Assembly: GCF_022968795.1 (NCBI RefSeq) | Contig: NZ_JALJRB010000013.1 | Span: 56,292 to 120,291 of the forward strand | Reading direction: 5' to 3' | DNA length: 64,000 nucleotides | Source: Desulfatitalea alkaliphila | GTDB taxonomy: Bacteria; Desulfobacterota; Desulfobacteria; Desulfobacterales; Desulfosarcinaceae | In this document: piece after piece, positions 9,300 to 64,000 of the stretch | How positions within the stretch are numbered: the first letter of the stretch is position 1 | Layout of the letters: each line of letters begins with the position of its first letter | Notes under the pieces: model-generated | Told to the model about the DNA's origin: nothing | Databases searched by the model: none | What the model saw: the letters and a program-made list of their open reading frames with translations, nothing else | Program-made: the position numbers and the translations under genes

Positions 9300-9364
9300 C
9301 GCTGAAACCTCCCGCTCGCCCGGTGCGATCGGGGCAAATAACAGTGATTGAACCGGAGAATTTG

Positions 9365-41557: not shown

Positions 41558-42063
41558 AAAATAACGACAACCACCTCCGGCTTTTTGTCTACGGAACCCT
41601 CAAAAAGGGATTCTGGAACTTTGACCGGTTCTGCACCCGGGCCATCGGCATCGAACCCGCCACCACTTGGGGAAGGCTCTACCAGCTGCCAGCGGGATTC
41701 CCGGCCTTGGAGGTCCCGGAGAGCTCAGTGCTGGCCACCGGTACCGATGATCCATTGGCCGATACCCGAACACAGAACGCCATCGAGCTGCCTGAATATG
41801 GCATGGCCCGACCAGAAGGCGACTGGGATCTGGTCCACGGGGAACTGATGACCTTCACCAATCCCGGCTTCGATCTGCCGCCCATTGACCGGCTCGAGGC
41901 ATTCGATCCCAATGGCCGCTGTGTTTATAAGCGCGTTCTGGTGGCGGTAAAGACCAACGACTTGATCCGGCCCGTCTGGCTGTACACCATGCAACCACCT
42001 GAAAATCCGAGATTAAAAAGAATTTTTTCTGCGTGGAACGGAGAAAAGTTAATAGAAATGTGA
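41554..42063 (+). CDS. Gamma-glutamylcyclotransferase-like (AIG2/GGCT) protein
   Basis: 169 residues. The family hallmark YGTLKKG is at residues ~12-18, and VHGELMTF supplies the conserved glutamate. Related enzymes cyclise gamma-glutamyl amines to 5-oxoproline, which would remove or finish a gamma-glutamyl tag made by the amidoligase. The correct start is ATG 41554, overlapping the amidotransferase stop and preceded by AAGGAG; a longer frame upstream is not needed. Last gene of the cassette. Confidence 0.88.
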   Translation: MKNNDNHLRLFVYGTLKKGFWNFDRFCTRAIGIEPATTWGRLYQLPAGFPALEVPESSVLATGTDDPLADTRTQNAIELPEYGMARPEGDWDLVHGELMTFTNPGFDLPPIDRLEAFDPNGRCVYKRVLVAVKTNDLIRPVWLYTMQPPENPRLKRIFSAWNGEKLIEM

Positions 42064-42070
42064 TTGTGTG

Positions 42071-42111
42071 ATAAAATTTTATTTGACATGGGCGGGCTCT
42101 GTTTGTATATT
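42071..42111 (+). promoter_or_regulatory. Sigma70 promoter with A/T palindrome, defence operon
   Basis: TTGACA (42083-42088), a spacer of exactly 17 bases and TATATT (42106-42111) form a near-consensus housekeeping promoter. Directly upstream is the perfect palindrome ATAAAATTTTAT (42071-42082), which could act as an UP element or an operator. The transcript would start near 42118, with GGAG at 42139-42142 ahead of ATG 42149. Unlike the phage-type elements, this needs no phage factor, so the operon should be expressed constitutively. Confidence 0.85.
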
Positions 42112-42148
42112 GGGTAATGTAAAAGTGAGTATGTGACACGGAGATTAT

Positions 42149-43477
42149 ATGAAAGCTCAAGAATACATAAAGGCAAGAGGCATTGAGGTTACCCCACTGG
42201 ATAATGCGAGCGTGGGTCGCCTGTCTATTGATGCGGAGTTTAAGTATGCCGGAAAACGGGGTGTTGTCGTGTCTCCGAAGCGTGGGTCTGTCTCTGATCG
42301 ATACCTGTCTTTGCTTTCTAACGAGGGCGTATCCTTTGTTGTGGCTGAAGGCGGCTCGACGCTGTCGTTCTATGAAGCACCCCCAAAGGCAGGCGGGCTG
42401 CATCCCGTTCGCGCTTTGAGACCTGTTAAGGCAGGGCTATTTCCATCGCAGGATGTTTTTGAATATCTCTCGACCCTCCTGCGGCAAAGCGTGAAAAAAC
42501 GGGAGGCTATCGATGCTGTTGCGTCGAATCTTCTGGTTGCCCGAATTGCTGATGAAGAGGCAGGAAAAGAGGATGCGTGGGCGTGCTCTATCTCTGGAAC
42601 GGTTGATGAGTGTTCTGATTTGATTTCGAGCATCAAAGGCAAACTGAAAGATGCAGATATCAACTCTGAAGGCGTTTTGAAGTTGTGTGCCGTCCTTGCT
42701 GGCTTTAGACTGAAGCCAGCGACACCCGAAGAGTCAGCCCGGTTGACCGATTGGGTGGCACGAGCAAGCGATGATAAAAAATGCATACAAGGATTGCCGT
42801 TGGCCCTGTCTCCGGTTTTTCAGTCTATGGGTGAACGCGCAAACTCAATAGCGCTTGTTACATCTGCTGTAGGCGCTCAGTTTTCAATTCTGTCCGGTTC
42901 GGGCAATGGTGAAGTCGTTCTGGAGAATGGGAATCAGGAGCTTCTATCCCTGTTGCAGGTTTTGTATCCCAAAGCCTCCTTCATCGATGATGGCTATCTT
43001 GAAAGTAAACCAGCCAAGAAAAAGGATGCCGTTGTATTGATCCCCCCATTCGGCAGATCAATACAATTGAAAAAGGATGCCGCATTAACCAGTCCCTTTT
43101 TTAAAGGTAATCCAGCGTCAAAGAAATATCCCGCTGAATACTTTTATTTAATCAAGGTCATTGATCAGTGTAAGCCGGATGGTCTAATTGCAGTCGTATT
43201 GCCGGAAGGGATTTTATCCGGAGCAAGCCACAAGGCTTTCCGGGATTGGCTGTTGGATTCCGTGCAGGTTCTTGGCATCGTCAGCTTGCCGCCCGGATTC
43301 TGTTTTTCCGGCACAGGCATTCGATGCTCTATTTTGTTCATGAAAAAGGCCAAACAGATTCCCGCTGATTACTCGATCTCAATGACCGAATTACAGCAGG
43401 AAGACTTCGACAGCGATGTAATTGCTGCCACGATTGAAACCATTAAAGCGGCATTTAATCCGGAGGATCGCGCATGA
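42149..43477 (+). CDS. Degenerate N6-methyltransferase (HsdM-like), probably inactive
   Basis: 442 residues. The C-terminal ~160 follow type I methylase subunits: FYLIKVIDQCKPDGLIAVVLPEGIL, WLLDSVQVLGIVSLPPGFCFSGTGIRCSILFMKK (in parts). The catalytic motif IV, normally NPPF, reads IPPF at 298-301, and no SAM-binding DxxCGSG is found upstream; instead SGSGNGEV is present. It probably cannot methylate. It may be a regulatory or recognition partner for the specificity protein downstream, or bind modified or unmodified DNA. First gene of the operon; overlaps the next by four bases. Confidence 0.7.
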   Translation: MKAQEYIKARGIEVTPLDNASVGRLSIDAEFKYAGKRGVVVSPKRGSVSDRYLSLLSNEGVSFVVAEGGSTLSFYEAPPKAGGLHPVRALRPVKAGLFPSQDVFEYLSTLLRQSVKKREAIDAVASNLLVARIADEEAGKEDAWACSISGTVDECSDLISSIKGKLKDADINSEGVLKLCAVLAGFRLKPATPEESARLTDWVARASDDKKCIQGLPLALSPVFQSMGERANSIALVTSAVGAQFSILSGSGNGEVVLENGNQELLSLLQVLYPKASFIDDGYLESKPAKKKDAVVLIPPFGRSIQLKKDAALTSPFFKGNPASKKYPAEYFYLIKVIDQCKPDGLIAVVLPEGILSGASHKAFRDWLLDSVQVLGIVSLPPGFCFSGTGIRCSILFMKKAKQIPADYSISMTELQQEDFDSDVIAATIETIKAAFNPEDRA

Positions 43478-44823
43478 GAAGTACCGTGATCCAGCTGAAA
43501 AAGTTTCGCAAAAAAGGCAACCGCCTCGACCCCCGGTTTTACCTTGGTGAGAAGACAGTAAAGACCATTACAAACGGTAACTACGACAGCTTCATCAAGT
43601 TGGGGGACCTGCTTGATTATTTTGCCGACGGCTCACGATTGACCTCATGTGAAGCAGGTATCCCGATGCTGCGTCTCAGCAATCTCGATGCATGCGATAT
43701 CCATTTTTCCGGGTTGAAATATGCGTCAATAGATAAGGCCGCCAAGTGGACGGCGGTAAAGCCTCAGGATGTGCTGTTCACTCAGGCTGCCGAACCTTTC
43801 AGGGCAGCGGTTATGCCCGAGGGGTTTGACGATATTACCGTGTCTTCCGAGATCACGGTCATGCGCCCGAAGTCGGCCGTTGTACCCGAATATCTGGCGG
43901 CCATACTGTCCGCACCCACCATGGGCAGGATTCTGAAAGATCTCGCCTACAGGCGGTCTGCCACAGCGTTAAGACGATTGCGCCTTAAAGATATTGCCGG
44001 AATTCCCATCCCGCTTCCGGGCCGAGAACTGCAAAACAAAATCAAGAAGGCTTATGACGATGCAGCACGCCTGAGCCAGGAGTCGGAAACAGAACTGTCT
44101 CAGATTGTACAGGCTGTCCACGCGGAGATCGATCGCAAGACACAGATGCAGATAACCATGCGCCAGTTCAAGATCCGGAAAACGGAATTGATTGGCCGAT
44201 GGGATGTTGCGTTTTGCGCAAATGAGGTGCTCCGGAAGCAGCTGCTGGAGAGTGGCAGCGTTACACATCTTCTTCAGGTAGCCAAAACGGTTCCATCAAC
44301 CTTGAAAGGGATTGACGAGGATGAACAGGTTTGCGCTGTGAAAGCCGAGCATATCAACGAAAACACCATGATGGTGGAAAGCGTGGAAACCTGCCGATTA
44401 TCCGACCTTTCACCCCGAATGAGGCAGCCGTTGAATCCCGGGGACGTGTTGATCTGCACAACGGGTAACGGAGAACAAGTGGCCTATCTGGATGAAAAGA
44501 CGGCGGCCGAAGACTGCAGGATTCTTGGAAGTGCCACGTTTACCGCTCTGCGCTTCACTGAAACGCCAAGGTATTTCACCATTGCCATGACTCACCCTAT
44601 TGTGCGGGCGCAATTGAACAGCCTTGCCACTGGGGCCGTGCAGCGTTTTATCAGCAAAAAGGATCTGGATTCGCTGCTGGTTCCCAAATTGTCGGTGATC
44701 TGGCGGGAAGATTTTGACAGTCGTGTCGCCCGGGCCTTCGAGAGAAGGCGTGAAGCCTTGACCGCAAAAGCCCATGTATTGGAGTTTGCTGAGCAGTTTT
44801 TACGGGAGGAAATGAAGCAATGA
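43474..44823 (+). CDS. Specificity (HsdS-like) protein 1
   Basis: 449 residues organised as two target-recognition domains separated and followed by helices. The first runs to the conserved end RLRLKDIAGIPIPLPGRELQNKIKKAYDDA, a type I S-subunit hallmark, and the second to ~residue 440 (FISKKDLDSLLVPKL...). It should read a bipartite DNA sequence on behalf of a methylase. Adjacent to, and overlapping, the degenerate methylase gene, which suggests that the two form a pair. Overlaps the next gene by four bases. Confidence 0.85.
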   Translation: MRSTVIQLKKFRKKGNRLDPRFYLGEKTVKTITNGNYDSFIKLGDLLDYFADGSRLTSCEAGIPMLRLSNLDACDIHFSGLKYASIDKAAKWTAVKPQDVLFTQAAEPFRAAVMPEGFDDITVSSEITVMRPKSAVVPEYLAAILSAPTMGRILKDLAYRRSATALRRLRLKDIAGIPIPLPGRELQNKIKKAYDDAARLSQESETELSQIVQAVHAEIDRKTQMQITMRQFKIRKTELIGRWDVAFCANEVLRKQLLESGSVTHLLQVAKTVPSTLKGIDEDEQVCAVKAEHINENTMMVESVETCRLSDLSPRMRQPLNPGDVLICTTGNGEQVAYLDEKTAAEDCRILGSATFTALRFTETPRYFTIAMTHPIVRAQLNSLATGAVQRFISKKDLDSLLVPKLSVIWREDFDSRVARAFERRREALTAKAHVLEFAEQFLREEMKQ

Positions 44824-45284
44824 GTATTGCATCCCAAATGATTGAATATCTAAACCGCGAAGGTGCCGCCACACCGGAGACCATTGCGGCTTCAATACCC
44901 GACCTGAATCAGTGCGGTGGTGCCGAACGCGCCCTGTTGTTGTTGCGGTTGAACCCGAAGTTTGAACGTATCGACAAGGAAGCCTCTTCACCAGCGGAAC
45001 CTTGCGACGGTTTTATGGTGAAGGAAGACGAAGTTCCTTATCTGGCCAGCTCCAAATGGACCACACGCGGCAGCGGAAAGTCCGATGAGGAGGTGATCCA
45101 TGATGCGGCGATCCAATACTTCAGGACAGTCGGAAAACAAGGCGATCTGATCAGCAATGTAGTTTCGGCGGTAACCCAAACAACCGGGCTAAGCGCACCG
45201 GCGGTGGAGCAGGCTTTACGGTCTCAGTTTATGACAATGAATACGAATGTTTTTAACCGGCCCAACCGGCAGGAGGATAGATAA
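44820..45284 (+). CDS. Small helical, possibly winged-helix protein
   Basis: 154 residues. Residues ~1-55 (SQMIEYLNREGAATPETIAASI ... LLLLRLNPKFERI, in parts) resemble a winged helix. The C-terminal ~75 residues are helical and end in a polar tail. It lies between specificity protein 1 and the intact methylase and overlaps neither by more than four bases. It could be a DNA-binding regulator or an adaptor of the methylase complex. Family not recognised. Confidence 0.6.
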   Translation: MSIASQMIEYLNREGAATPETIAASIPDLNQCGGAERALLLLRLNPKFERIDKEASSPAEPCDGFMVKEDEVPYLASSKWTTRGSGKSDEEVIHDAAIQYFRTVGKQGDLISNVVSAVTQTTGLSAPAVEQALRSQFMTMNTNVFNRPNRQEDR

Positions 45285-45286
45285 TT

Positions 45287-47284
45287 ATGGCTAAGAAAAA
45301 AGACAATGCACCGGGCAAGCTCCGGGGACAGGCCCGGGAGCAACTTGCCGAACTGGGTTACGAAAAACTTATTGAGGACTTCCAGCTGTTTGATCCGTTT
45401 GGCGACGGCAGCATGGATGCCACTGCGGATCTGGTGGCGATGGATGGTGACGAGCCGGTGATTCTTTTTGCGGCAGCAGATCCCGGCGATGCCGCCCGTC
45501 CTTCCATTCAGGATGACGCCAAGTTCAAAGCCGGGCTGGGTGCGGATGAAGGCAAGCCGTTCCGCTTTGTCTGGGTATGGGATGGCGACAATCATTTTGT
45601 CTTTGATCTGGAAAAAGACGCCCAGATTTCCGACCTGCCGCGCAAGGATTTATGGCGAGAGATTGCCAAGCCGATTTCCGATTCCCGTTCCCGTCTGCTT
45701 CAGGATCTTTCCGCTGAGTATCACCGTGGAGACTTCCGGGCGATCCAGCGCAAATTCGACCAGTTGCATGATGCCATTTACTCCCGGGGCGGCGTTAAGC
45801 CGACCAATGCGGCTATCGATGAACTGGGCAAACTTCTGTTTCTGCGCATTCATCTTGAAAAATCACCCCGCTACAAGATCAAGGACGGTGCTGGTAAGGG
45901 CAAGCTGTTCTCCGAGATCTACTCTTCCGAGTATGTAAAAAAGAATGGGAAGAAGGCTGTCATCGAACTGAAAGATGCCTTCAGGGAGATCAACAATCTG
46001 CCGCAGTACAATGCCAAGGACATTACCGGTGAAGTTCACACCATTTTTGCTTATGACGAGCCGCTGAAACTTGAAAACACCGATATCCTCGCCATGGCAA
46101 TCGATTCCATGGATCTGCGCGACCGCGATGGTCAGCCTATCCGTTTGTCAGTGCCGGACAAGGAACTGGTGGGTAATGGCGAACAGGCCCGGATGATGAG
46201 GGCGCATCTCATCCACGAAGACCTTCTTGGCTGGGCGTTCGATGTCTTCCTTCGCGGCAAATATGCCAGCAACGAGGGCTTGGCTACCTACCTGACCCCT
46301 TCACAGGTGGTTGAGTGCATGACCCACATGGTTTTCCATGACATCACCGATGCCGAGCTTTGGGCTCGCCGGGGTGATAAGGATCAGCAGGAGCGCTGGA
46401 GTCCCGGTAAAGATGAAAAAAATCTGCCCGCCTTTCTATGCGGGGATATCTGTTGTGGTACTGGCCGTTTTCTGGTGGGCGCACTACGCGAGATCAAAAA
46501 ACGCATTCTTGATGACAAGCATGTGGGTCACAGCGACGAAGACAAGCTGGCATGGCTTAGCCAGATGAAGCGCCACAGCTTCTTTGGGGCGGATCAGGCA
46601 GAAGGCAGCATCCAGAAGGCACGCATCAACATGCTGCTCTATGGAGAGGACCACAGCCAGCTGCTGAAAGTCGACGACTCCATTACGGATAACCATGTGG
46701 ATAAGCTGGTGGGTAAATTCGATCTGATTCTGACCAATCCGCCTTTCGGTTCTGGAAAGTATGATGATCCGGTTGGTATGGCCAAAATGCGCAAGGATGA
46801 ATTAGGTCTCGAACTTGGCTGGAAATGGAAGGCAGGTGATCGCAGCAAGAGAAAAGAACAAGATAAATCAGACCCAGCTGCGCTTTTTGTGGATCGCAAC
46901 CTGCAATTACTGAAGCCCGGTGGACGCCTCTTGATTGTCGTTCCGGACGGCATTCTCTGCAACTCGGGTGATGCCTATATCCGTGAATACATCATGGGAT
47001 CGAAAGATGATGAGACCGGCGAATTTTTAGGAGGTAAGGCTATCCTGAAAGCGGTTGTCAGCCTGCCTACGGAGACCTTTGCAATCTCAGGCACAGGCGC
47101 AAAGACCAGCTTCCTTTATCTGCAAAAGAAAAAGCATGCCTCTGAAAAACAGGGTTCGGTTTTTATGGGCGTTGCCAATCATGTTGGATATCTGAAAAAG
47201 GGCAAAACAGAAATGCCTGATCCCGCAGGTAATGACCTCGTCACTATTGCACACGAATATTCTAAGCTGGAGGGAACGAGATGA
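45287..47284 (+). CDS. N6-adenine DNA methyltransferase, HsdM-type
   Basis: 665 residues. Motif I, GDICCGTG, contains D387 and the Gly-rich SAM-binding turn to G393. Motif IV is NPPF at 484-487, so it should be catalytic. An N-terminal helical domain of ~330 residues precedes the Rossmann core, and the C-terminal part carries the usual SLPTETFAISGTGAKTSFLYL. Length exceeds the ~500 residues of many HsdM proteins. AGGAGG precedes the ATG. Followed by its own specificity protein (overlap ATGA), so it is the modification unit of the operon. Confidence 0.9.
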   Translation: MAKKKDNAPGKLRGQAREQLAELGYEKLIEDFQLFDPFGDGSMDATADLVAMDGDEPVILFAAADPGDAARPSIQDDAKFKAGLGADEGKPFRFVWVWDGDNHFVFDLEKDAQISDLPRKDLWREIAKPISDSRSRLLQDLSAEYHRGDFRAIQRKFDQLHDAIYSRGGVKPTNAAIDELGKLLFLRIHLEKSPRYKIKDGAGKGKLFSEIYSSEYVKKNGKKAVIELKDAFREINNLPQYNAKDITGEVHTIFAYDEPLKLENTDILAMAIDSMDLRDRDGQPIRLSVPDKELVGNGEQARMMRAHLIHEDLLGWAFDVFLRGKYASNEGLATYLTPSQVVECMTHMVFHDITDAELWARRGDKDQQERWSPGKDEKNLPAFLCGDICCGTGRFLVGALREIKKRILDDKHVGHSDEDKLAWLSQMKRHSFFGADQAEGSIQKARINMLLYGEDHSQLLKVDDSITDNHVDKLVGKFDLILTNPPFGSGKYDDPVGMAKMRKDELGLELGWKWKAGDRSKRKEQDKSDPAALFVDRNLQLLKPGGRLLIVVPDGILCNSGDAYIREYIMGSKDDETGEFLGGKAILKAVVSLPTETFAISGTGAKTSFLYLQKKKHASEKQGSVFMGVANHVGYLKKGKTEMPDPAGNDLVTIAHEYSKLEGTR

Positions 47285-48753
47285 GTCATATCTTAAGAAC
47301 AGCACCTTCCTGTGCGGTTGTCCCTCCCGAGGAAATAAAGGGCAGGATTGATGCGTCCTATTATGATGAAAGATACAACGATTTAGATAAGGAGTTGAGT
47401 AGGTTTCGCAGTAATCAAAAAGTGCTACTGGGTGATCTTTTAGATTCTCCAAGGAGAATTCTATATCAAAAAACCACGACTTTTGAGCAACCAAATATTC
47501 CTGATGAAGCAATTCCGTTCATCTCAGGAGTTGATTTAGATGGCGATACAATGAGTATCAATTGGAGTCGGGTTAAATATGTCGAAAGCTGGATGGCTGA
47601 TAGATACCCAAAAGGAAAACTATTTTCTGGAGCTCTTTTAATAAAGGTTAAGGGGCCAAATCAACACACTGTCTATGTGTCCGAAAATAATAGGTTAGCC
47701 TTAGTAAGCGGAACAGTTTTCTTTTCTAAAACAAAAGGCTGTGATCCCTATTATTTAACTAGCTACCTATCGAGTAAATCTGGGGTCAAGTGGAGGTCTC
47801 GGTTAAGAACAAATACAACCGTGGAATTTATCGGCAATGAAGAATTGCGTAACGTACCAGTTTTATTGCCGGATGAGAAGGTTCAGCGATTTATTGGGAA
47901 ACAGCTGAAGCTTGCTGAAGAATGCAGACGAAGAGCTGATGCACTCCTTAAAGAAGCAAATCAGATGTTTGACCAAAAACTTCTAACAAGCTCATTTGCC
48001 GCATCGAATGAAAAATCAAATTTTATTGACCTAAATCGATTACAGGAGCGCATCGCCGCAGAATTCTATTTGCCAAAATATTATCAGATTAATTCACACT
48101 TCACACAAATAGGTTTACGAACAATTGATTTTGGTTCTGCCTGTGAAAGCATATTCCGTTCTTCGACTCCCAAGCGTAGCGATGCAGGGAATATTCCTTG
48201 CTTATTAACAACAGATATAAAGCCCTACAAAATATCACATACACAAGCTGCAATAAAAATAGAACCAAACATCTATCGAAATCATGTCGGCAAGCTCCAG
48301 GCAAAGGATATAGTCTACTCTTCAATCTGCTCACCTCATGGTGATGCCGCAATCGTTTTGCCTCACTGGGGAAAAATGTCTGCGGGAGGAGATGTTACCG
48401 TTATAAGGGCAAATGATGATTTCCATCCGGGATATCTTTGCCTGTTCTTGAATTCTATTTTCGGTCGTATGCAAAGTGAACGATATTCACGAGGAAGCGT
48501 GCAAAGGCGCGTATATCCAGATGATATAGAGTCCTTCAGTCTTCCCCATCTAAGCAAAGATGAGCAGAATCAGATTGGTAGAAGAGTTATTCAATTTCAA
48601 ATTTTGTGTGAGAAGTCCTTCGAGATTTCAAGCCAAGCAAAAGAAGCAACGGACAAATTGGTTAAGGGCCATTTAGATACCGACGCCATCCTGTCTGGCA
48701 AACTCAAAGCCCCGACTTGGGAAAATATCGAAAAAGAACTGGAGGGCATTTAA
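47281..48753 (+). CDS. Specificity (HsdS-like) protein 2, A+T-rich
   Basis: 490 residues with the two-TRD plan. The first repeat ends at FIGNEELRNVPVLLPDEKVQRFIGKQLKLAEECRRRAD and the second at DDIESFSLPHLSKDEQNQIG (in parts), each followed by a helix. The gene is visibly richer in A+T than its neighbours, with codons such as TTA, ATA and AGA that are rare elsewhere here, so it was probably exchanged recently, as expected for target-specificity genes. It would direct the intact methylase upstream. Confidence 0.88.
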   Translation: MSHILRTAPSCAVVPPEEIKGRIDASYYDERYNDLDKELSRFRSNQKVLLGDLLDSPRRILYQKTTTFEQPNIPDEAIPFISGVDLDGDTMSINWSRVKYVESWMADRYPKGKLFSGALLIKVKGPNQHTVYVSENNRLALVSGTVFFSKTKGCDPYYLTSYLSSKSGVKWRSRLRTNTTVEFIGNEELRNVPVLLPDEKVQRFIGKQLKLAEECRRRADALLKEANQMFDQKLLTSSFAASNEKSNFIDLNRLQERIAAEFYLPKYYQINSHFTQIGLRTIDFGSACESIFRSSTPKRSDAGNIPCLLTTDIKPYKISHTQAAIKIEPNIYRNHVGKLQAKDIVYSSICSPHGDAAIVLPHWGKMSAGGDVTVIRANDDFHPGYLCLFLNSIFGRMQSERYSRGSVQRRVYPDDIESFSLPHLSKDEQNQIGRRVIQFQILCEKSFEISSQAKEATDKLVKGHLDTDAILSGKLKAPTWENIEKELEGI

Positions 48754-48755
48754 TC

Positions 48756-49217
48756 ATGCAGATACTCGGGATACGCACCGCTTCAACCTGTGTCCGATAC
48801 GCCATTGTTGAATGGGATGGTCAGACAGCCTCGTTGGTTAATTCCGCCGCTGAGAACAAACTGGATTTTCCGGCAGACTGTCAGGAGATACCTCAAAAGC
48901 TGCAATGGCTTTATTCAGAGCTTGAGCGGCTATACAGGATGTATCCCGATATTTCCAAAGTTGCCATCAAGATGAACCAGTTCGGAACAGAAAAGATGGC
49001 GAACCGTTTTTCAACCCACATGGATGGCGTTGTCATGCTGTCCGCCCTTCAGAATGGGAAAACGGCCCACACCTTCCTGTATGCAAACATGCAGCAAGGC
49101 ATGAGCTCCAAAAAAGTCCAGGCATTTGCCGAAGACAATGTGGGACGTTCAGATAAATACTGGAATGCGCAAATGGCTGATGCCGTGGCTGCCGCATGGA
49201 CCGGGAGGGATAAATAA
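48756..49217 (+). CDS. RNase H/RuvC-like fold protein, catalytic Asp missing
   Basis: 153 residues beginning MQILGIRTASTCVRYAIVEWDG. The first strand has the form of a RuvC/RNase H-like hydrolase (usually ILGIDxS), but the catalytic Asp is Arg. The C-terminal NAQMADAVAAAW recalls the closing helix with Asp of RuvC-like proteins. The DUF3010-like families have the same shape. Whether it is a nuclease is doubtful. The ATG at 48756 follows GGAGGGC; an in-frame upstream extension overlaps the specificity gene and is rejected. One-base overlap with the kinase (TAATG). Confidence 0.55.
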   Translation: MQILGIRTASTCVRYAIVEWDGQTASLVNSAAENKLDFPADCQEIPQKLQWLYSELERLYRMYPDISKVAIKMNQFGTEKMANRFSTHMDGVVMLSALQNGKTAHTFLYANMQQGMSSKKVQAFAEDNVGRSDKYWNAQMADAVAAAWTGRDK

Positions 49218-52682: not shown

Positions 52683-52683
52683 A

Positions 52684-56748: not shown

Positions 56749-57617
56749 AAACCCTAATTCTTGATATCCAGAAAGACCTGTTTGAGTCATCGGTGCTGGA
56801 ACAATCAGCTGAAATACAATTTGTATCAGTTGATGAAGTCCTTGGGGTGAAAGGCGTCCCATGCGTTCTGCTTGGCTCCAAAGGGATTGATGACTTTACC
56901 GGCACCGTGCGTAAGCTGGCGCGGGCCAATTATCAAAACGGTACCGGTCTGATCATCATAAATCCGCCGATTGACACCGATATTGGCAACGCTGTTGACG
57001 CGCCTGTTTCAATCACGGTGAAGAAACGTAAAGCATCTTCTTTTTGTAAGCCCTCGGGGTTTGATGGTCTTGATGGCGAAAGCAAATATGAGATCTGGTC
57101 GGATGGCACGATTGAGTCATCACTGAGCTCTGGCGTGATGGGCGTTGACGATAATAAGGGTACCGTCCTGCTCAAATATCAGCCCAAGAATACATCAGGC
57201 GCGGTTTTTATAACCACTTTGAAGTTGCTTTCCTACAGCGGGATGACCAACGAGGCCGACAGAGAATCACTGCTAAAGTTGCTTCTGATATGGGAGAACA
57301 AACAGTCGTTTGTCAATGAAGAGCCGACCGAAGATGTGACGGCTTCAGATGAGAGTGTATTGCATACTGTGGCAATCCTCTCTTTTTCATATGACAGCAA
57401 AGACCCGGATAAAATTTCAGCAGCCATGTCCCGGTTTTTTACCCTCAACACCGACGTGGATGCCGTCCGGCAAGTGTTAGAGCAACTTTCAATTAATCTG
57501 AACGCAACAAAGGAAAATTGGAAGTCCAAACTCGAAGATTATATCGATCAGGCCGGACACTACTCCTATGCGCGGGAAATAAAGGAAATACTTGAAGACG
57601 AGGAGGCTGGCGTATGA
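56745..57617 (+). CDS. Unknown operon protein C
   Basis: 290 residues, acidic, without a signal peptide or membrane segment. The N-terminal third shows Rossmann-like alternation (LLGSKGIDDFTGTV, GTGLIIINPP) and the rest is helical, ending in an acidic tail. The NPP here is not a methylase motif, as no SAM site or aromatic residue follows. Tight coupling to the ATPase before and the NurA-like gene after places it in the execution part of the operon. Family unknown. Confidence 0.6.
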   Translation: MKTLILDIQKDLFESSVLEQSAEIQFVSVDEVLGVKGVPCVLLGSKGIDDFTGTVRKLARANYQNGTGLIIINPPIDTDIGNAVDAPVSITVKKRKASSFCKPSGFDGLDGESKYEIWSDGTIESSLSSGVMGVDDNKGTVLLKYQPKNTSGAVFITTLKLLSYSGMTNEADRESLLKLLLIWENKQSFVNEEPTEDVTASDESVLHTVAILSFSYDSKDPDKISAAMSRFFTLNTDVDAVRQVLEQLSINLNATKENWKSKLEDYIDQAGHYSYAREIKEILEDEEAGV

Positions 57618-58759
57618 AAAGCGTTGAAATGTCACGCGCATTGACAGCAGCCATGAGCCTGCGCCTTCCCGGCACCGCTGGCAAACTGGCCAACAAGATG
57701 CGCTATGTCGATTCCAAAGGACCACTGTTTCATGACGGGGGCCTGATTAGGAATATTACCCAAGGTAAGCACGAGAAGGTGTATGCCGTTGGTATCTCTT
57801 CGAAAAGCAAAAGCATGCCTGCTCTGGGTGGATTGCTCTATGGAGCTGCTGCCCTTCGGCACGACTTGGTCGTCGCCAATAACGAGGTCAGTGAAGGTCT
57901 GCAGGACAGTCGAGTCGACATCAACGATATGAATTTCCTCGGGGCGTCAGAACGCCTTGTGTGGAAGGAGTTCATTCTTGTTTACCGACTCCTTTCGGAT
58001 TTGATGAGCTCTGATACCAAGCCAGACATCATTTTCGTGGATATCCCTCTACTGGTTTCCCGGGCGGAACAAAGCGTCTTTCTTGAAGAAGAGGATGTAC
58101 AGGAGGACTGGCAGGCCCTTCTACACGTGATGGAGGATTTCTGGCAGCGCCACCTGAATGACTTTTACCCTAACAATCCCGACGGACCATTCCTTGTATC
58201 ACTACAAACCAAGCGGGATCTGAACAGTGCCGTCCTGAATGCCATTCGAGAAGAAGGTCAGTCAGGAAGCCCGGAAGCCATTGATGACAAAATCGTGAAC
58301 CTAATCCGTGAGGACTGGGGGCAGCTACGAAGAGTCGGTATCCTGCGTTTTCTGAAAGGGACACTTAAGGCTGGGCGCAGAACAGCTGCCTTCTATTACG
58401 AGTCTCTCAGTAAATACATGAAGCGTTTTGAACCGAAGCTTGTTTCAGAGCATGGCCTTGTTGGATTTCACCTTCAGGTTGGGCTGCGTACACCCATCTG
58501 GAAGGTTGAAACCATTGGTAAGCGTGACAGCTGGAGCACAGAGAGTCTCGATAAGCTTGCAGGGCTGATCTCGTATTTAACCATTCACGACAACCCCAAA
58601 ATGAAGCCGCTTCCTCTGTGGTTTGCCGAACAGCTTGTTCGTATGCCTAAGGAAGTTCTAATCAGCTATTTAAAATCGACCCTCGCAATGCTCAGAGACA
58701 GAGAGGTTGATCAGACATGGCTTGAAGGTATCGACACAATTCAGGAAGAGGTAGAATAA
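57614..58759 (+). CDS. NurA-like protein, first catalytic Asp uncertain
   Basis: 381 residues. The C-terminal part (GLRTPIWKVETIGKRD then LPLWFAEQLVRM) resembles the end of NurA nucleases, which have P-x-x-R/K-V-E and YPxxLxxAH-type segments. DIIFVDIPLL at ~130-140 resembles the second DGSL-like Asp motif. In the position of the first Asp (normally VDGS) the sequence reads VGIS. Its place one base before HerA is the classical NurA-HerA order. It may be a divergent or inactive nuclease. The TAATG overlap couples it to HerA. Confidence 0.55.
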   Translation: MKSVEMSRALTAAMSLRLPGTAGKLANKMRYVDSKGPLFHDGGLIRNITQGKHEKVYAVGISSKSKSMPALGGLLYGAAALRHDLVVANNEVSEGLQDSRVDINDMNFLGASERLVWKEFILVYRLLSDLMSSDTKPDIIFVDIPLLVSRAEQSVFLEEEDVQEDWQALLHVMEDFWQRHLNDFYPNNPDGPFLVSLQTKRDLNSAVLNAIREEGQSGSPEAIDDKIVNLIREDWGQLRRVGILRFLKGTLKAGRRTAAFYYESLSKYMKRFEPKLVSEHGLVGFHLQVGLRTPIWKVETIGKRDSWSTESLDKLAGLISYLTIHDNPKMKPLPLWFAEQLVRMPKEVLISYLKSTLAMLRDREVDQTWLEGIDTIQEEVE

Positions 58760-60453
58760 TGAAAAATAATCAAGAAAACTTTATCGGTAAACTGGTTGGG
58801 AACACGGGCCAACCGGACAAATTGACCATTGCTCTCCGGAATAGCTTTTCAGCAAGGCGCGGCGAGTTCGTCAGGATCGCTCATCAAGAGCGTGAAAATG
58901 ACCAGAACATGGATGTACTCGGGCGTATTGTCTCCCTTTCCAGAAACAGCATCCTGTTCAACCCTGCTCTTGGTGAAGGCATTAGCGAGGTTGAGCTACT
59001 GCCACACTCCAAAATTTCCGGGGAAACGGTGTATGGAACCATTGAACTGGTTGGTTACAAAGATCCATATACAGGTGAAATCAGAATCCCTCGCAGACCG
59101 CTTAATCCGGGCACTAAGGTCTACAGTGTCGATTATGACTTTTTGACCAAGTTTTATGATTTCTCTGAGGACACCAGCATTCACCTTGGCAACCTTGTCG
59201 GGTACGAAAAAGGCTCAAATGTCGTTCCTGTATATCTTGATGCCAACACGCTGGTGACAGAACACTTAGCCGTGCTGGCTATGACCGGCTCTGGTAAAAG
59301 TTACACCGTTGGGCGAATTATTGAACGCCTTGTTGCTCAGCTGAACGCATCGGTTGTGGTTTTCGATCCCCATGGGGAGTACGGGAAGGCATTGCGAGGC
59401 GGAACCCTGAATTTCAATGACCGGCTTGATTCCGTAGAGGATGTAAGGGACCGGGAGAAGCTCGTTGAAATCCAAACAAGGTTGCAAGCCCTTCAAGATA
59501 AGGGGGCTGGCATAACTGTCTTTACGCCTCAACTCAGAAGCTTTACCGAAAAATATGCCGGTAAGAATCAGAACCTGGCCCTGCAGCTGGATCATTTCGA
59601 TGTGGATGAATTTTCAGGTGTGTTACCGGGTCTCACGGAGCCACAGCAGCGTGTACTCGATGTGGCGCTGAGGTATTGGAAGGAAAATTTCGAAGAGCCT
59701 CGGGATATTCAGGAGCTGTTCTCTGTTTTGGACGACCTTGACCGCCTGAAAAATTGGGTTGCTGAATCAGGAAGCCCGGGTGAAGCCAGCGCCCTCAAAG
59801 GCGGAAGTGCCAATATTGCCGCCATCCGGTTACGCCGGATGATTAATGAGGCACAAAGCTTTTATACCCGTGCCGCAGGCGACCCCTTCGATGTTTACAA
59901 AATGGTCGGAGATGACAACGAACCCTACGGACGAATTTGTATTGTGGATCTTCAAGGACTCTCAAACACGGCAAGACAGGTCATAGTTGCATTGATATCC
60001 AGTGAACTGATGAAAGCGGCGGGCGACAAGAACCGTCCGATAAGACCCTCTTTTATCATCTATGAAGAAGGCCACAATTTCGCGCCCAATGGTGAACCCT
60101 GCATATCAAAGAACATCATCAAGCGGATTGCAGCCGAAGGTCGAAAGTTTGGAGTCGGGTTTGCCATCGTAAGTCAGCGCCCCAGCAAGCTGGACTCAGA
60201 CGTCACCAGTCAGTGCAACACGATTGTGGCCATGCGTATCAAGAACCCGGATGATCAACGATTCATTCAGAAAACATCTGATTATTTCTCCGCAGCTGAC
60301 CTTGCTGAGTTGCCGACACTGTCAACAGGTGAAGCATTGATATGCGGCCGGGCAATTATCGCTCCGCTGGTGGTAAAAGTCGGAACAAAGGCCCTTGTTC
60401 ATGGAGGAGAGTCGCCGAAAGTATGTGAACGCTGGGGAAAACCGGAGATTTGA
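58759..60453 (+). CDS. herA: HerA-family DNA-translocating ATPase
   Basis: 564 residues. The N-terminal HAS-barrel region precedes the Walker A MTGSGKS at 175-181. FDPHGEYG (D203) is a typical HerA/FtsK-like segment, and the Walker B-like YEEGHNF has E436-E437. The C-terminal part includes SQRPSKLDSDVTSQCNT, the arginine-finger and polar region. HerA rings move on double-stranded DNA and work with NurA or other nucleases in end resection and in several anti-phage systems. It overlaps the next gene by one base. Confidence 0.95.
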   Translation: MKNNQENFIGKLVGNTGQPDKLTIALRNSFSARRGEFVRIAHQERENDQNMDVLGRIVSLSRNSILFNPALGEGISEVELLPHSKISGETVYGTIELVGYKDPYTGEIRIPRRPLNPGTKVYSVDYDFLTKFYDFSEDTSIHLGNLVGYEKGSNVVPVYLDANTLVTEHLAVLAMTGSGKSYTVGRIIERLVAQLNASVVVFDPHGEYGKALRGGTLNFNDRLDSVEDVRDREKLVEIQTRLQALQDKGAGITVFTPQLRSFTEKYAGKNQNLALQLDHFDVDEFSGVLPGLTEPQQRVLDVALRYWKENFEEPRDIQELFSVLDDLDRLKNWVAESGSPGEASALKGGSANIAAIRLRRMINEAQSFYTRAAGDPFDVYKMVGDDNEPYGRICIVDLQGLSNTARQVIVALISSELMKAAGDKNRPIRPSFIIYEEGHNFAPNGEPCISKNIIKRIAAEGRKFGVGFAIVSQRPSKLDSDVTSQCNTIVAMRIKNPDDQRFIQKTSDYFSAADLAELPTLSTGEALICGRAIIAPLVVKVGTKALVHGGESPKVCERWGKPEI

Positions 60454-61067
60454 TGAAAAGAAGCATAAACATAAGCGAAACAGTTTTTTCTGCCGTCACT
60501 GATAAGTCTCACATGGCAGAGAACTTTCCTATGCTTTTGCAGTCGGGAATCCCAGACCGTGGTGTGACGATCCATTCGCACTTTTTGACCTACTTGTCGA
60601 GCTGCGGTCAAAAAGCCGGGTATTCCGCGATTACGGAATGCCCCGTGAGTATTAACGAATCATTTCAAGGCATCGGAGAGATCCGGGCTGATTCCGTGTG
60701 GTTTGATAAATCGGATTTAAAACCGAGAATCGCCTTCGAGTTCGAACGCTTTGAAAAAGGTGATGAAAAGAAGCTCAAGCAGAAGGTTGAAAACTTGGCG
60801 ATAACAGCGGCGCTCAGTGAGACCATTGAATTGGCCGTTCTTGTCTACTGGGTCCGGTCCGGCTCCATGCCCAGAAGCATGGATGGTGTAGTCGCCCCAT
60901 ACGGAGCCAGCTTCAGAAGAAACGGGATCGTGGTCCCCAAAGCCATGACACCGTTAATGGTAATCAAATGCGTCATGAAAAGCTCTGGAGATACGCAGGA
61001 TCTTGTGTTTGGGGAACTCCTTCGGGATATGCGTAATGAACGGCACTTATCTGGAGGAAGTTATTAA
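60453..61067 (+). CDS. Possible PD-(D/E)XK-like nuclease
   Basis: 204 residues. The segment EIRADSVWFDKSDLKPRIAFEFERFEKGD (read in parts) has the spacing of a restriction-like fold: an Asp in RAD, then E-x-E (EFE) ~14 residues later, where nucleases usually have E-x-K. A helix rich in Lys follows. The fold is likely, but the active site is incomplete, so the nuclease call is tentative. ATG 60453 overlaps the HerA stop (TGATG). It would be the third partner of the HerA module. Confidence 0.45.
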   Translation: MKRSINISETVFSAVTDKSHMAENFPMLLQSGIPDRGVTIHSHFLTYLSSCGQKAGYSAITECPVSINESFQGIGEIRADSVWFDKSDLKPRIAFEFERFEKGDEKKLKQKVENLAITAALSETIELAVLVYWVRSGSMPRSMDGVVAPYGASFRRNGIVVPKAMTPLMVIKCVMKSSGDTQDLVFGELLRDMRNERHLSGGSY

Positions 61068-62638
61068 TGGGCATTTTCTTTAGAACAAAGAAAAACGAAC
61101 TCCTTGGAGACCGGTTTCGGCTTATTGAAGAAGTCGGCAAAGGAAGCTTCGGTGAAGTATGGAGGGCCGAACGTTTATCTGACGGGAAGCATGTCGCCAT
61201 CAAGATCCCAAAAGATCAAGAAAAAGGTGAGGAGGTCCTTCGTAAAGAAGCAGATATCGTTAAAGGAATCATCCACCCGAATATTGTGCAGGTGTACGCA
61301 TTTCATAACATAAGCGACCTGTTCTTCATTGAAATGGAATTCATAGACGGGTTCAGCCTTTCAGCAATTTTGCAGGGCTCGAACAATGCAACGAGCCTGT
61401 CTTTCAAACAGATGCTGGAATGGCTTGCCAATATACTGGATGGACTCGCAGCCGTGCATCAAAGGAATATTTCACACAACGATCTTAAGCCGGAAAACAT
61501 CCTTATCGCCAAGGATAGCAACAAGGCCAAAATAACTGACTTTGGCGTCAGTAGAAGATTTGAGGATGCGTGGGTATGGACCAAGCGTCATGGAACAGAG
61601 GCGTACATGGCTCCGGAAGTGGCTCTGGAAGGTAAACGTAGCAAGGTGTCGGATATTTATTCGCTCGGAGTCTTGTTATATGAGATGACCACAGGCTCCC
61701 TCCCATACACCAGTCCACACCAATTGTTGACGGGCTTAAACATCTCAAAGCCCCGGGAAATCAACACCGATATTCCATCCGACCTTGAACGGGTGATTCT
61801 GAAAGCGATGGAACGGCGGCCGGAAAAACGGTATCAAAGCGTCGGTGAGTTGCGAGCTGATGTCGATCGATGTGTGGATTCCTTGTCAGTCAGCAATGTG
61901 ATGACGGAACTGCCTTCTCGGTCCGCACCCAAACAAGAATTCCAACCACCTTCATCGAGCCCGCTCTATTACCTTGAACTCGCCAAAAAGAAGCTTTCCG
62001 ATGGTGATCATCAGGGGGCCTTGGAAGCGGCAGAAGCTGCAGTTGACCGCAGCGATGAACATCCTCAGTACCTGCGGATGCTCGGCGGTATTTGCATTCG
62101 TGTGGGATACAAAAAGAAGGCCATTGCTGCTTATGAACGGTTGATGAGTATCTATGAGCGCGGATACCCAGTTGAGGATCGCCAGAAGATAGAGACCATC
62201 GAGCGTCTTGGCTCTCTATATGTGGACGATCAGCGTTATGAACAGGCCATCCAGATTTACACCTCGCTGGTCAAGATAACCTCAAGCTCCTATGCCAAAT
62301 TTAAACTCGCGATTGCCTATGGCTTGGATGGTGATTACCGACAAGCGATTCAGCTTCTTGAAGAGGTCCGAAATGAAAAACCTGAGGCTTTGGTGGTCTA
62401 TAACAAACTGGCATGGGCTCATGCATTAAACGGAGATGATCACCTCGCTCTCAGCTTCTATAACCAAGCGTTGGCAATAGATGCTTTTGACCTGTTCAGC
62501 CTTTTCCACCTTGGGCAGTATTACCACATCATCGGTGATCGTCGCAGGTCAAATGAGTATTTCCAGCGGCTTTATAACGCAGATAAGGTTGGTGATTATT
62601 CCGCCCGGGCAAAAAAAATTACAGGTGATGATAAATAA
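61067..62638 (+). CDS. Serine/threonine protein kinase 2 with TPR domain
   Basis: 523 residues. N-terminal kinase: VGKGSFGEVW at ~23-32, K46 in AIKI, HNDLKPEN with D139, DFG at 158-160 and APEV. As in kinase 1, HRD is HND. Residues ~302-515 are tetratricopeptide repeats (about six; for example GALEAAEAAVDRSDEHPQYL and YRQAIQLLEEV), which bind partner proteins. No membrane segment. It is separated from the next gene by only 11 bases. Two kinases in one operon suggest a relay or two separate triggers. Confidence 0.95.
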   Translation: MGIFFRTKKNELLGDRFRLIEEVGKGSFGEVWRAERLSDGKHVAIKIPKDQEKGEEVLRKEADIVKGIIHPNIVQVYAFHNISDLFFIEMEFIDGFSLSAILQGSNNATSLSFKQMLEWLANILDGLAAVHQRNISHNDLKPENILIAKDSNKAKITDFGVSRRFEDAWVWTKRHGTEAYMAPEVALEGKRSKVSDIYSLGVLLYEMTTGSLPYTSPHQLLTGLNISKPREINTDIPSDLERVILKAMERRPEKRYQSVGELRADVDRCVDSLSVSNVMTELPSRSAPKQEFQPPSSSPLYYLELAKKKLSDGDHQGALEAAEAAVDRSDEHPQYLRMLGGICIRVGYKKKAIAAYERLMSIYERGYPVEDRQKIETIERLGSLYVDDQRYEQAIQIYTSLVKITSSSYAKFKLAIAYGLDGDYRQAIQLLEEVRNEKPEALVVYNKLAWAHALNGDDHLALSFYNQALAIDAFDLFSLFHLGQYYHIIGDRRRSNEYFQRLYNADKVGDYSARAKKITGDDK

Positions 62639-62649
62639 AGGAGAGTGTG

Positions 62650-63840
62650 ATGTTTCAAACAGAAGTGGCATCGGAAAAAGAGTTTTCAGACTGGAGCGAA
62701 TTGTATGCGTGGGTCGCTGATGAAGAAAAATCTACATCACGAGTTCCAATACAGGGCTTACTGAAAAATGGAGCCAAATTCCAGGAAGATAAATATTTCG
62801 GCGGCTCGGAATACAAACTTGCTTTCACCGAAGAAGGACTAAAAGCGCTCTGCTACAAACTCGGCTTTCCTCTGCTTGCCCTTGAAATGACAAAAGAAAG
62901 TGAGTTGGCCTCAAGAATACTAAATGATCTCCTCGGCCAAGATAATGCGAAAGCACAGCTGTCCAATAGTGAATTTGTGATCAATGAAAAAGGCAGCGAC
63001 TCATCACATGGGAAAGTTTGTGGAATTGTTTCGAGTAGCTATGTCGGATACAGCAACAATTCATTTGTGCGAGATATTGAAAATGTAATAAGTGAAAATG
63101 ATTTGTCCTCTGCAGGAAAGCTGACTTTAAAAGAGGCATACTCAATAAACACAAGGCTGCACCTTCGACTTACCAGCATGCACATCTCTGGAACGGTTTC
63201 CGGCCGGGGAGGTATCTCTGAAGATAAAACAGAAATAGGTCTTGAATTTTGCAACAGCATGGTAGGTGATGCCGCTGTTTCTATAGATTATTTCCTCCAT
63301 CGGTTGGTATGTGCCAATGGACTGGTGTTGCCTGCCGGTCGAAATGGAGCACGAGTTATTCATTCTGGAAAAGCCAAAAATTTCTTGACCCGCTTAAACA
63401 AGGCTTTTGGTGATGTGCTCGCAGGAATGGGTGAAAAAGCAACGTATGTGAAGGAACTCAGTGATATCGAGTTTTCTCCGCAAAGACTGTCTGAGTTAGA
63501 TCTCAGCAAAATGATTTTTGACATCATTCCGAAATCAAAATCCACCGTTATTGATAAGCATAGAAATGTTTTCAATGACTTCATTTTTAGGAAACTAAGC
63601 CCAGAGGACAAACTAAAAAGAGAAGAGCTGGCGATAGGATACTTGCCGCTTTGTTTTGCTGGAGAGCTGTCAAAAGCTGTCTTCAATTCTAAATATCGGG
63701 ACAACGCCTCAATGTTTGACCTGATAAATGTATTTACTGAGCACGCCAAAGAAAAACAACCCGCCGAACGGTTGGAAATTCAGAAGCGATCTGGTCAGCT
63801 CGCTGAATGGGTTGTCAACAATAAGAAAAAGTTTAATTAG
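62650..63840 (+). CDS. DUF932-like protein
   Basis: 396 residues. HRLVCANGLVLP at ~residue 220 is the DUF932 signature; such proteins occur in phages, plasmids and defence islands and their activity is unknown. AAGGAGAG lies six bases before ATG 62650; the GTG one codon upstream is an alternative. The gene is visibly richer in A+T than the neighbouring kinase gene, so it may have joined the operon separately. Its stop abuts the next ATG directly. Confidence 0.7.
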   Translation: MFQTEVASEKEFSDWSELYAWVADEEKSTSRVPIQGLLKNGAKFQEDKYFGGSEYKLAFTEEGLKALCYKLGFPLLALEMTKESELASRILNDLLGQDNAKAQLSNSEFVINEKGSDSSHGKVCGIVSSSYVGYSNNSFVRDIENVISENDLSSAGKLTLKEAYSINTRLHLRLTSMHISGTVSGRGGISEDKTEIGLEFCNSMVGDAAVSIDYFLHRLVCANGLVLPAGRNGARVIHSGKAKNFLTRLNKAFGDVLAGMGEKATYVKELSDIEFSPQRLSELDLSKMIFDIIPKSKSTVIDKHRNVFNDFIFRKLSPEDKLKREELAIGYLPLCFAGELSKAVFNSKYRDNASMFDLINVFTEHAKEKQPAERLEIQKRSGQLAEWVVNNKKKFN

Positions 63841-64000
63841 ATGAACGTTCAAGATGCAGCCATACAGATATTAAAGGACGCTGGAAAGCCTCTCCATGCC
63901 AAAGAGATCGCCGAGCGGATTATGGAAGCGGGTTTGTGGTCAAGCGATGGTAAAACGCCAGAGGCCACTGTCAGCGCTTGCCTTTACTCGAATATTAAAA
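63841..64000 (+). CDS. HARE-HTH domain protein, N-terminal part (partial)
   Basis: ATG at 63841 follows the previous stop without a gap and runs to the window edge. The first 53 residues, AIQILKDAGKPLHAKEIAERI through EAGLWSSDGKTPEATVSACLYSNIK (in parts), are the HARE-HTH helix-turn-helix domain, which in bacteria is often fused to restriction endonucleases. The rest, and any nuclease domain, lie beyond the window. Confidence 0.85.
   Translation, partial: MNVQDAAIQILKDAGKPLHAKEIAERIMEAGLWSSDGKTPEATVSACLYSNIK

What the first reader, a model, noticed from the sequence alone, without database searches (positions are those of the whole stretch)
42071..64000. Seventeen-gene modification/kinase/HerA operon, candidate undescribed defence system
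Seen: a single strong promoter followed by at least 17 genes with overlaps or gaps of at most 13 bases, encoding two HsdM-like and two HsdS-like proteins, a RuvC-like protein, two Ser/Thr kinases, a 1354-residue ATPase, a NurA-like protein, HerA, a possible PD-(D/E)XK protein, a DUF932-like protein and a HARE-HTH protein. Known: type I restriction needs HsdR; BREX/Pgl needs PglZ; DISARM needs DrmA and DrmB. None is in the window. Inference: a modification-gated anti-phage system combining methylation, phosphorylation and HerA-nuclease execution. Gene content recalls the methylation-associated defence system (MADS) as I remember it, but the number of orphan genes here is larger. Its right end is outside the window.
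Basis: partly seen in the sequence, partly recalled or inferred. Interest (0 to 1): 0.93.

Follow-up and report, generated by a model that had tools for sequence, protein, structure and literature searches.

The report
Methylation-gated HerA defence operon, cross-phylum
A 20-kilobase cassette of about fifteen genes, kept in the same order in bacteria of several phyla and matching no named defence system in the libraries searched, likely lets cells mark their own DNA by methylation and would destroy unmarked phage DNA with a DNA pump and a nuclease; it also carries a second marking enzyme without its catalytic motifs, which may have become a switch or sensor.

Summary
The operon is real: from one promoter (42083-42111), 17 overlapping or near-abutting genes run to the contig end, which is the window end. 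D-E-[slot]-H-I-J-K-L-M-N-O recurs in 13 of 14 J-bearing loci (Actinomycetota, Bacillota, Desulfobacteraceae, a gammaproteobacterial MAG), with A-B upstream wherever read (7 of 7). A divergent copy found through HerA alone keeps the order at 26-62% identity. Six core families (C, H, I, J, K, L) have no family in Pfam, NCBIfam or PADLOC. MADS shares only MTase, S, kinase and HerA domains with it. New: (1) the first HsdM (A) lost its catalytic motifs in 8 of 8 sequences, D keeps them in 14 of 14 genomes; (2) E, the S subunit beside D, is hypervariable (median 31%, 91 pairs) while B is conserved; (3) paired GTGAN4GTGA repeats flank the promoter in 11 of 12 carrier genomes; (4) N is predicted to be a PD-(D/E)XK nuclease; (5) the slot holds a PARIS-like pair in two relatives. 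Best reading: a restriction-like system whose HsdR is replaced by an ATPase, a kinase and HerA plus nuclease. Function is untested; the NurA and RuvC assignments are weak; several carriers are MAGs.

The parts
42060..42071 (+). operator-like repeat 1, GTGATTGTGTGA (GTGAN4GTGA)
   Evidence: the pair is the only match of the paired pattern in the 5.07-Mb own genome
42083..42111 (+). promoter, -35 TTGACA, 17-nt spacer, -10 TATATT
42125..42136 (+). operator-like repeat 2, GTGAGTATGTGA
42149..43477 (+). A: HsdM-like protein without SAM and NPPF motifs (pseudo-methyltransferase)
   Evidence: Pfam N6_Mtase E=3.4e-16; motifs lost in 8 of 8 sequences
43474..44823 (+). B: HsdS-like specificity subunit, conserved between genomes
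   Evidence: PADLOC Specificity_I E=1.2e-22; 88-96% identity within clades, 46-73% between
44820..45284 (+). C: small orphan protein, 154 aa
   Evidence: no family; conserved next to D
45287..47284 (+). D: HsdM methyltransferase with intact motifs
   Evidence: PADLOC MTase_I E=8.3e-116; GDICCGTG and TNPPFG in 14 of 14 genomes
47281..48753 (+). E: hypervariable HsdS specificity subunit, swapped as a cassette (about 47237-48675)
48756..49217 (+). F: weakly RuvC-like protein (slot gene)
   Evidence: NCBIfam RuvC E=1.3e-4, below cut-off; also in L004 and L005
49217..50284 (+). G: Ser/Thr kinase (slot gene)
   Evidence: Pfam Pkinase E=7.3e-36
50266..51519 (+). H: orphan core protein
   Evidence: no family; present in 13 of 14 loci
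51516..52682 (+). I: orphan core protein
   Evidence: no family; 13 of 14 loci plus a piece in L006; 26% identical in G322
52684..56748 (+). J: 1354-aa ATPase with Walker A/B near the N-terminus
   Evidence: 16 of 16 rows; relatives
56745..57617 (+). K: fast-evolving orphan core protein
   Evidence: 13 of 14 loci, 30-36% identity outside the close relatives
57614..58759 (+). L: conserved HerA neighbour, NurA-like by UniRef name only
58759..60453 (+). M: HerA translocase
   Evidence: Pfam DUF87 E=2.8e-39; 83-99% identity among 8 operons
60450..61067 (+). N: predicted PD-(D/E)XK nuclease
61067..62638 (+). O: Ser/Thr kinase with TPR repeats; last gene of the conserved unit
   Evidence: Pfam Pkinase E=1.2e-49 plus TPR; similarity to relatives ends at 62629-62642
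62647..63840 (+). P: DUF932 protein (accessory)
   Evidence: Pfam E=2.1e-8; also in L004
63841..64000 (+). Q: start of a HARE-HTH protein, cut by the contig end (accessory)
   Evidence: Pfam E=2.2e-18

Best explanation
This is a gene cassette, conserved in order across bacterial phyla, that likely works as a methylation-gated DNA-destruction system against phages: the methyltransferase D with its ever-changing specificity partner E is predicted to mark host DNA, and unmarked incoming DNA would be pumped by the HerA-family translocase M to the predicted PD-(D/E)XK nuclease N. Steps. (1) D/E writes N6-adenine marks at a strain-specific site (inferred from intact motifs and hypervariable E). (2) J, a large ATPase, with the orphans H, I and K recognises unmarked or foreign DNA and loads the effector (inferred from conserved order only). 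(3) Kinase O with its TPR arm licenses or triggers the effector by phosphorylation (inferred). (4) M, N and L degrade the DNA (M's family is shown, N's fold is predicted, L's part is inferred from its place beside HerA). (5) A/B, a methyltransferase without catalytic motifs and a conserved specificity subunit, does not mark DNA but reads a fixed sequence, as a sensor or as the operon's own regulator at the GTGAN4GTGA pair (inferred). (6) The slot between E and H holds interchangeable add-ons (F plus kinase G, a DUF1016/YhcG nuclease, a PARIS-like pair) that may guard against anti-restriction proteins (inferred).
For: Conserved order in 13 of 14 loci, A and B in 7 of 7 read upstream; a divergent copy found through HerA alone. 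Intact D motifs in 14 of 14 genomes, lost in A in 8 of 8. E 28-36% identical within clades where D is 92-96% and M 97-99%, with cassette edges at 47250 and 48676 against L004. N fold. HerA. PARIS-like and DUF1016 genes in the slot and an EVE-domain gene between H and I in actinomycetes are defence-type neighbours. Rare and sporadic: 1 of 198 and 1 of 395 genomes of the phylum. Each operon examined lies in a different genomic context.
Confidence: 0.55

Rival explanations
1. It is an enlarged subtype of MADS and works the same way.
For: D, E, O and M match MAD2, MAD5, MAD6 and MAD8 profiles weakly and by hhalign. The slot ATPase of relative L003 also hits PADLOC mad3 (E=1.1e-16), though PtuA and AriA score higher.
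Against: Scores lie far below the curated cut-offs: MAD2 133.6 of 720, MAD5 96.7 of 400, MAD6 164.6 of 460 bits. C, F, H, I, J, K, L, N, P and Q gave no match of 20% probability or more to any gene of two MADS loci, and the genes there named MAD7 and the long N-terminal part of MAD8 have no partner here. The test is limited: 1-3 sequences per MADS gene, and only MAD2 was identified by a library cut-off; the others are named by order, recalled.
Confidence: 0.1
2. It is a member of the HerA/FtsK capture systems (Rakesh, Aravind, Krishnan 2024): an Orc/CDC6-type ATPase and HerA intercept invading DNA for a nuclease, and methylation is an add-on.
For: That class combines Orc/CDC6 ATPase, restriction-type nuclease, HerA/FtsK and winged HTH (PMC10853773 sections 22 and 26). 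Here there are HerA, a PD-(D/E)XK fold and an N-terminal P-loop ATPase J.
Against: J matches no Orc/CDC6 family in Pfam and not BrxC. The sections read mention no HsdM/HsdS pairs or TPR kinases in those loci.
Confidence: 0.2
3. It serves a mobile element rather than cell defence: DNA transfer, maintenance or superinfection control by the prophage beside it.
For: In the window the operon directly follows prophage genes of moron type. HerA/NurA pairs are described in Thermus transjugation (PMC5365140, search listing only). L005 has serine recombinase-like genes just upstream (read by eye).
Against: In L003 the neighbours look like housekeeping genes (read by eye) and contexts differ between loci. 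Hypervariable specificity and swappable guard-like slot genes are typical of defence. No match in phage, plasmid or viral-contig collections.
Confidence: 0.12

Closest known systems
MADS (methylation-associated defence system)
   Same: Methyltransferase, HsdS-like subunit, Ser/Thr kinase and HerA-type ATPase in one operon
   Different: All scores far below MADS cut-offs; separate HerA (564 aa) with its own nuclease gene N; large ATPase J; orphans C, H, I, K, L; a second, catalytically degenerate M/S pair
Type I restriction-modification
   Same: HsdM and HsdS homologues; E diversifies by cassette exchange as HsdS does
   Different: No HsdR hit; effector is HerA plus N instead; duplicated pair A/B without catalytic motifs
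HerA/FtsK capture systems and BREX-related capture (BRC) systems (PMC10853773, PMC12839542; passages and sections read)
   Same: HerA plus a large ATPase plus a restriction-type nuclease
   Different: No PglZ, GNAT or TGT hit; J not matched to BrxC; HsdM/HsdS pairs and kinases are added here
PARIS (AriA/AriB; PMC9122126, passages read)
   Same: The slot of L003 holds an ATPase matching AriA (E=9.5e-25, though PtuA scores higher) and a partner matching AriAB/AriB (E=9.6e-7); L013 has homologues of both, 53% and 51% identical
   Different: Lies inside the operon as an exchangeable insert; absent from the window

Membership tests
MADS | MAD2 methyltransferase above NCBIfam cut-off (720 bits) | tested here: not met
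   D scores 133.6, A 44.8 bits
MADS | MAD5 specificity subunit above cut-off (400 bits) | tested here: not met
   E 96.7, B 59.3 bits
MADS | MAD6 kinase above cut-off (460 bits) | tested here: not met
   O 164.6, G 115 bits
MADS | Counterparts of the genes named MAD7 and MAD8 in two MADS loci | tested here: inconclusive
   hhalign: M to MAD8 C-terminus, probability 62%, E=7.5e-5; MAD7 none at 20% or more; only 2 sequences per gene, named by order
Type I restriction-modification | HsdM and HsdS | tested here: met
   PADLOC MTase_I E=8.3e-116 for D, Specificity_I for B and E
Type I restriction-modification | HsdR translocase-nuclease in the operon | tested here: not met
   no HsdR-type hit among Pfam, PADLOC or NCBIfam rows shown for the operon proteins
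BREX | PglZ | tested here: not met
   no PglZ hit in Pfam scans of A-Q
BREX | BrxC-type ATPase | tested here: inconclusive
   hhalign J profile against four BrxC sequences: probability 1.2%; a fold comparison was not possible
DISARM | DrmA and DrmB | tested here: not met
   none among PADLOC rows shown
HerA/FtsK capture systems | HerA/FtsK translocase | tested here: met
   M, Pfam DUF87 E=2.8e-39
HerA/FtsK capture systems | Active restriction-type (PD-(D/E)XK) nuclease | tested here: inconclusive
   predicted fold fits; activity untested
HerA/FtsK capture systems | Orc/CDC6-type AAA+ ATPase | tested here: inconclusive
   J has Walker A/B but no family hit; no structure
HerA/FtsK capture systems | Winged-HTH protein | tested here: inconclusive
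   C, H and I have no Pfam match; no model was made
NurA (gene L) | Pfam NurA PF09376 | tested here: not met
   no match in the window, L009 or G322 copies nor in 118 genomes of the phylum including the own one; the controls ring in 6 of 14 genomes
PARIS (slot of L003 and L013, not the window) | AriA plus AriB | tested here: inconclusive
   L003 pair hits AriA and AriAB/AriB models, but PtuA scores higher for the ATPase; L013 only by similarity to L003

The most novel reading that the evidence does not exclude
A duplicated type I methyltransferase-specificity pair has been turned into a regulator. The dead HsdM A with the fixed HsdS B no longer methylates but binds the bipartite GTGAN4GTGA operators that flank the operon's own promoter, so the system is held down by its own retired modification enzyme and released when phage anti-restriction DNA mimics pull A/B off. 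The sister pair D/E keeps writing an ever-changing mark, and a HerA-plus-nuclease machine replaces HsdR.
Probability: 0.25. Interest if true: 0.93.

Novelty: new variant of a known kind. Interest (0 to 1): 0.8.

Why it matters
If true, it adds a large restriction-like system to the BREX/DISARM/MADS group in which HsdR is replaced by a HerA translocase, a separate nuclease, a large ATPase and a TPR kinase, built largely from protein families nobody has named. It offers a clean natural experiment: a live writer with swapped specificity next to a dead, fixed copy and a fixed DNA element at the promoter. It also shows an exchangeable slot where PARIS-like guards are inserted into a restriction-type operon. 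Each of these points can be tested directly.

Tried and rejected
Rejected or left open: MADS; BREX by BrxC and PglZ; DISARM and type I R-M by missing hallmark genes. NurA by Pfam not confirmed. AlphaFold of L failed (pLDDT 43.8), so no fold search was run with it. PDB sequence searches with profiles of L, J, N and I gave nothing credible (E 0.33 or worse). J in plasmids and phages: no match. L profile in viral contigs: 29 stretches matched a pattern, none encodes a relative. F against the actinomycete 152-aa slot protein: no significant profile match. In G322, C has no match (0.9%) and H a weak one (33%); these two rest on position. Short direct repeats (9 bases or less) around the L003 operon are probably chance. 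VIA-align cannot exclude families it does not list. The B value for L010 was a mis-hit on E; one search replaces it. The first-order Markov null covers one upstream stretch of about 200 bases, not a genome. Against the operator reading: L013 has no exact repeat, only versions with 1-2 mismatches, and G322 has none, but its contig starts only 102 bases before its first gene.

Literature: eight searches answered. Seen: passages of PMC12839542, PMC12904381, PMC9122126 and PMC12458937; PMC10853773 by passages, outline and sections 22 and 26; PMC5365140 as a listing only. The MADS paper (Maestri 2024) did not turn up in the library; what I say of MAD gene roles beyond library names is recalled. None of the listings or passages seen describes this gene set, but preprints and most subscription papers lie outside the library, and the PADLOC copy dates from 2023.
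Full report
WHAT IS THERE. Seventeen genes on the + strand start behind one promoter and run to the end of contig C5 (the window is C5:56292-120291 of a 120,291-base contig). Neighbours overlap or lie at most 11 bases apart. In order: A HsdM-like, B HsdS-like, C orphan, D HsdM, E HsdS, F weakly RuvC-like, G kinase, H and I orphans, J 1354-aa ATPase, K orphan, L, M HerA, N, O kinase with TPR repeats, P DUF932, Q start of a HARE-HTH protein.

THE SAME OPERON ELSEWHERE. J as query found 14 loci in the collection of one genome for each of 84,980 species (close relatives only). Thirteen hold D, E, H, I, J, K, L, M, N and O in this order; the fourteenth, L006, is a 4.5-kb contig with only I and J. 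The 13 are two Desulfobacteraceae MAGs, a Gracilibacter MAG (Bacillota), nine actinomycetes and a gammaproteobacterial MAG. Upstream DNA was read in seven of them and holds A and B in 7 of 7. In a set of 5.8 billion proteins J gave 62 relatives, L 251 (names listed include Streptomyces, Burkholderia, Corallococcus and Nocardia) and N 227; each search scored only about 8,000 candidates. Within the window's (unnamed) phylum it is rare: J in 1 of 198 genomes, HerA at E<=1e-100 in 1 of 395, the own genome each time; among 60 relatives 2 of 60, the own genome and G322. G322 was thus found through HerA alone and carries a divergent version: D (37% identical), H-like, I (26%), J (26%), K-like, L (36%), an S gene, M (62%), N (34%), O (27%), then an SF2 helicase. 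Profile comparison supports I, J, L, N, O and S at 99% probability or more and K at 90%; H reaches only 33% and C none. This independent find is the strongest argument that the gene set is one system.

BOUNDARIES. Nucleotide similarity to L003 and L005 starts at 42049, just before the promoter, and ends at 62629 and 62642, at the end of O (62638); to L004 it runs to 63849, the end of P. So promoter plus A-O looks like the unit that moves. Contexts differ: in L003 housekeeping-type genes, with two pieces of what looks like one HdrB-type gene on either side; in L005 serine recombinase-like genes (both read by eye); in the window a prophage.

ONE LIVE AND ONE DEAD METHYLTRANSFERASE. D keeps the SAM motif GDICCGTG and the catalytic TNPPFG in all 18 rows aligned, which are 14 distinct genomes. 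A has no recognisable SAM motif there, and its NPPF position reads IPPF, VPPL, VPPF, VPPI or VPPP in 8 of 8 sequences from four groups. The partners behave in opposite ways. E is swapped as a cassette: against L004 the flanking DNA is 91.0% (to 47250) and 97.8% (from 48676) identical, while E itself is about 24% identical. Over 8 operons E is 28-36% identical within clades (9 pairs), where D is 92-96%, B 88-96% and HerA 97-99%; between clades B keeps 46-73%. Over 14 E alleles the median of 91 pairs is 31%, and eight pairs reach 56-71%, some of them between the gammaproteobacterial MAG and actinomycetes. This is how type I specificity subunits behave and makes D/E the likely writer. B's conserved recognition domains beside a dead A imply a fixed target.

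A FIXED DNA ELEMENT. Two GTGAN4GTGA repeats flank the -35/-10 boxes in the window, L003 and L005, and GTGAGYGCGTGA repeats do so in four actinomycete loci of 66-68% G+C. The paired pattern (repeats 40-65 bases apart) was sought in 12 carrier genomes: 11 of 12 have a match that fits the start of the operon. In seven it was read directly before A; in four (G002, G361-G363) the place is inferred from its distance to the operon. In the own genome it is the only match in 5.07 Mb. Extra matches elsewhere are 12 in a GTGA microsatellite of G001 and one repeat-rich stretch each in G004 and G005. G007 (L013) has no exact match, only versions with 1-2 mismatches. Random first-order sequences of the same composition and length hit 4 and 3 times in 200,000. 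Some protein of the operon very likely reads this element. A/B and C are candidates; nothing here decides between them.

SLOT AND ACCESSORIES. Between E and H: F and G in the window, L004 and L005. L004 adds a DUF1016/YhcG nuclease. L003 has DUF1016, an ATPase matching PtuA, AriA and, less well, mad3, and a protein matching AriAB/AriB. L013 has homologues of that pair, 53% and 51% identical. The nine actinomycete loci have a kinase, in L007, L009, L012 and L014 preceded by a 152-aa protein weakly like DUF3010. PARIS senses the anti-restriction protein Ocr (PMC9122126, passages), so the slot may hold guards. Between H and I, all nine actinomycete loci and L013 carry at least part of a gene with EVE and DUF7669 domains (domains called in L009; only its two ends remain in L007); the window and L003-L005 lack it. 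EVE domains are known (recalled) as readers of modified bases. P and Q may play such roles in the window.

COMPARISON. Two MADS loci of the phylum match only through MTase, S, kinase and HerA domains. BrxC does not match J. The nearest published idea is the HerA/FtsK capture systems, described in the sections read without HsdM/HsdS or TPR kinases.

VERDICT. Real, conserved, probably mobile, and not described in the sources searched. Defence is inferred, not shown.

Noticed in passing
window 1-42063 and L050 (G000:C5:39900-57500): A co-directional prophage gene set (serine integrase, exonuclease, helicase, primase, portal, Mu F, tail sheath, baseplate, then amidoligase, glutamine amidotransferase and gamma-glutamyl cyclotransferase of moron type) runs from about C5:40110 right up to the operon, so the operon may be prophage cargo; its right end is not assembled.
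   Followed up: partly
L017 reverse strand 10929-11315 and L003 20502-21398: Two pieces of what looks by eye like one HdrB/CCG-type gene flank the operon in L003, as if it had landed inside that gene; no clear target-site repeat was found.
   Followed up: partly
L046 and L047 (G322 contig C419): Divergent copy of the system with the S gene between L and M, followed by an SF2 helicase matching PADLOC PbeA (E=8.6e-61) and, further on, a second helicase-like ORF of 948 aa.
   Followed up: partly
L037 (G044) and L038 (G304): MADS loci with MAD2 over cut-off: G044 has two MAD2-type genes in tandem (1034.7 and 808.1 bits), and the gene before the S subunit differs between the two loci (protease-like in one, Fic-like in the other, by eye).
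   Followed up: no
L019 8509-12682: Serine recombinase-like ORFs lie directly upstream of the operon in the Gracilibacter MAG (read by eye).
   Followed up: no
window 9323-11752: An 809-aa phage-region protein whose first half is a D12-class adenine methyltransferase (Pfam E=2.3e-24, residues 67-326), with no Pfam match in the rest.
   Followed up: no
L007 828-1577 and L023 about 10503-11321: In actinomycete loci an additional ORF of about 250 aa fills the gap between B and C; not identified.
   Followed up: no
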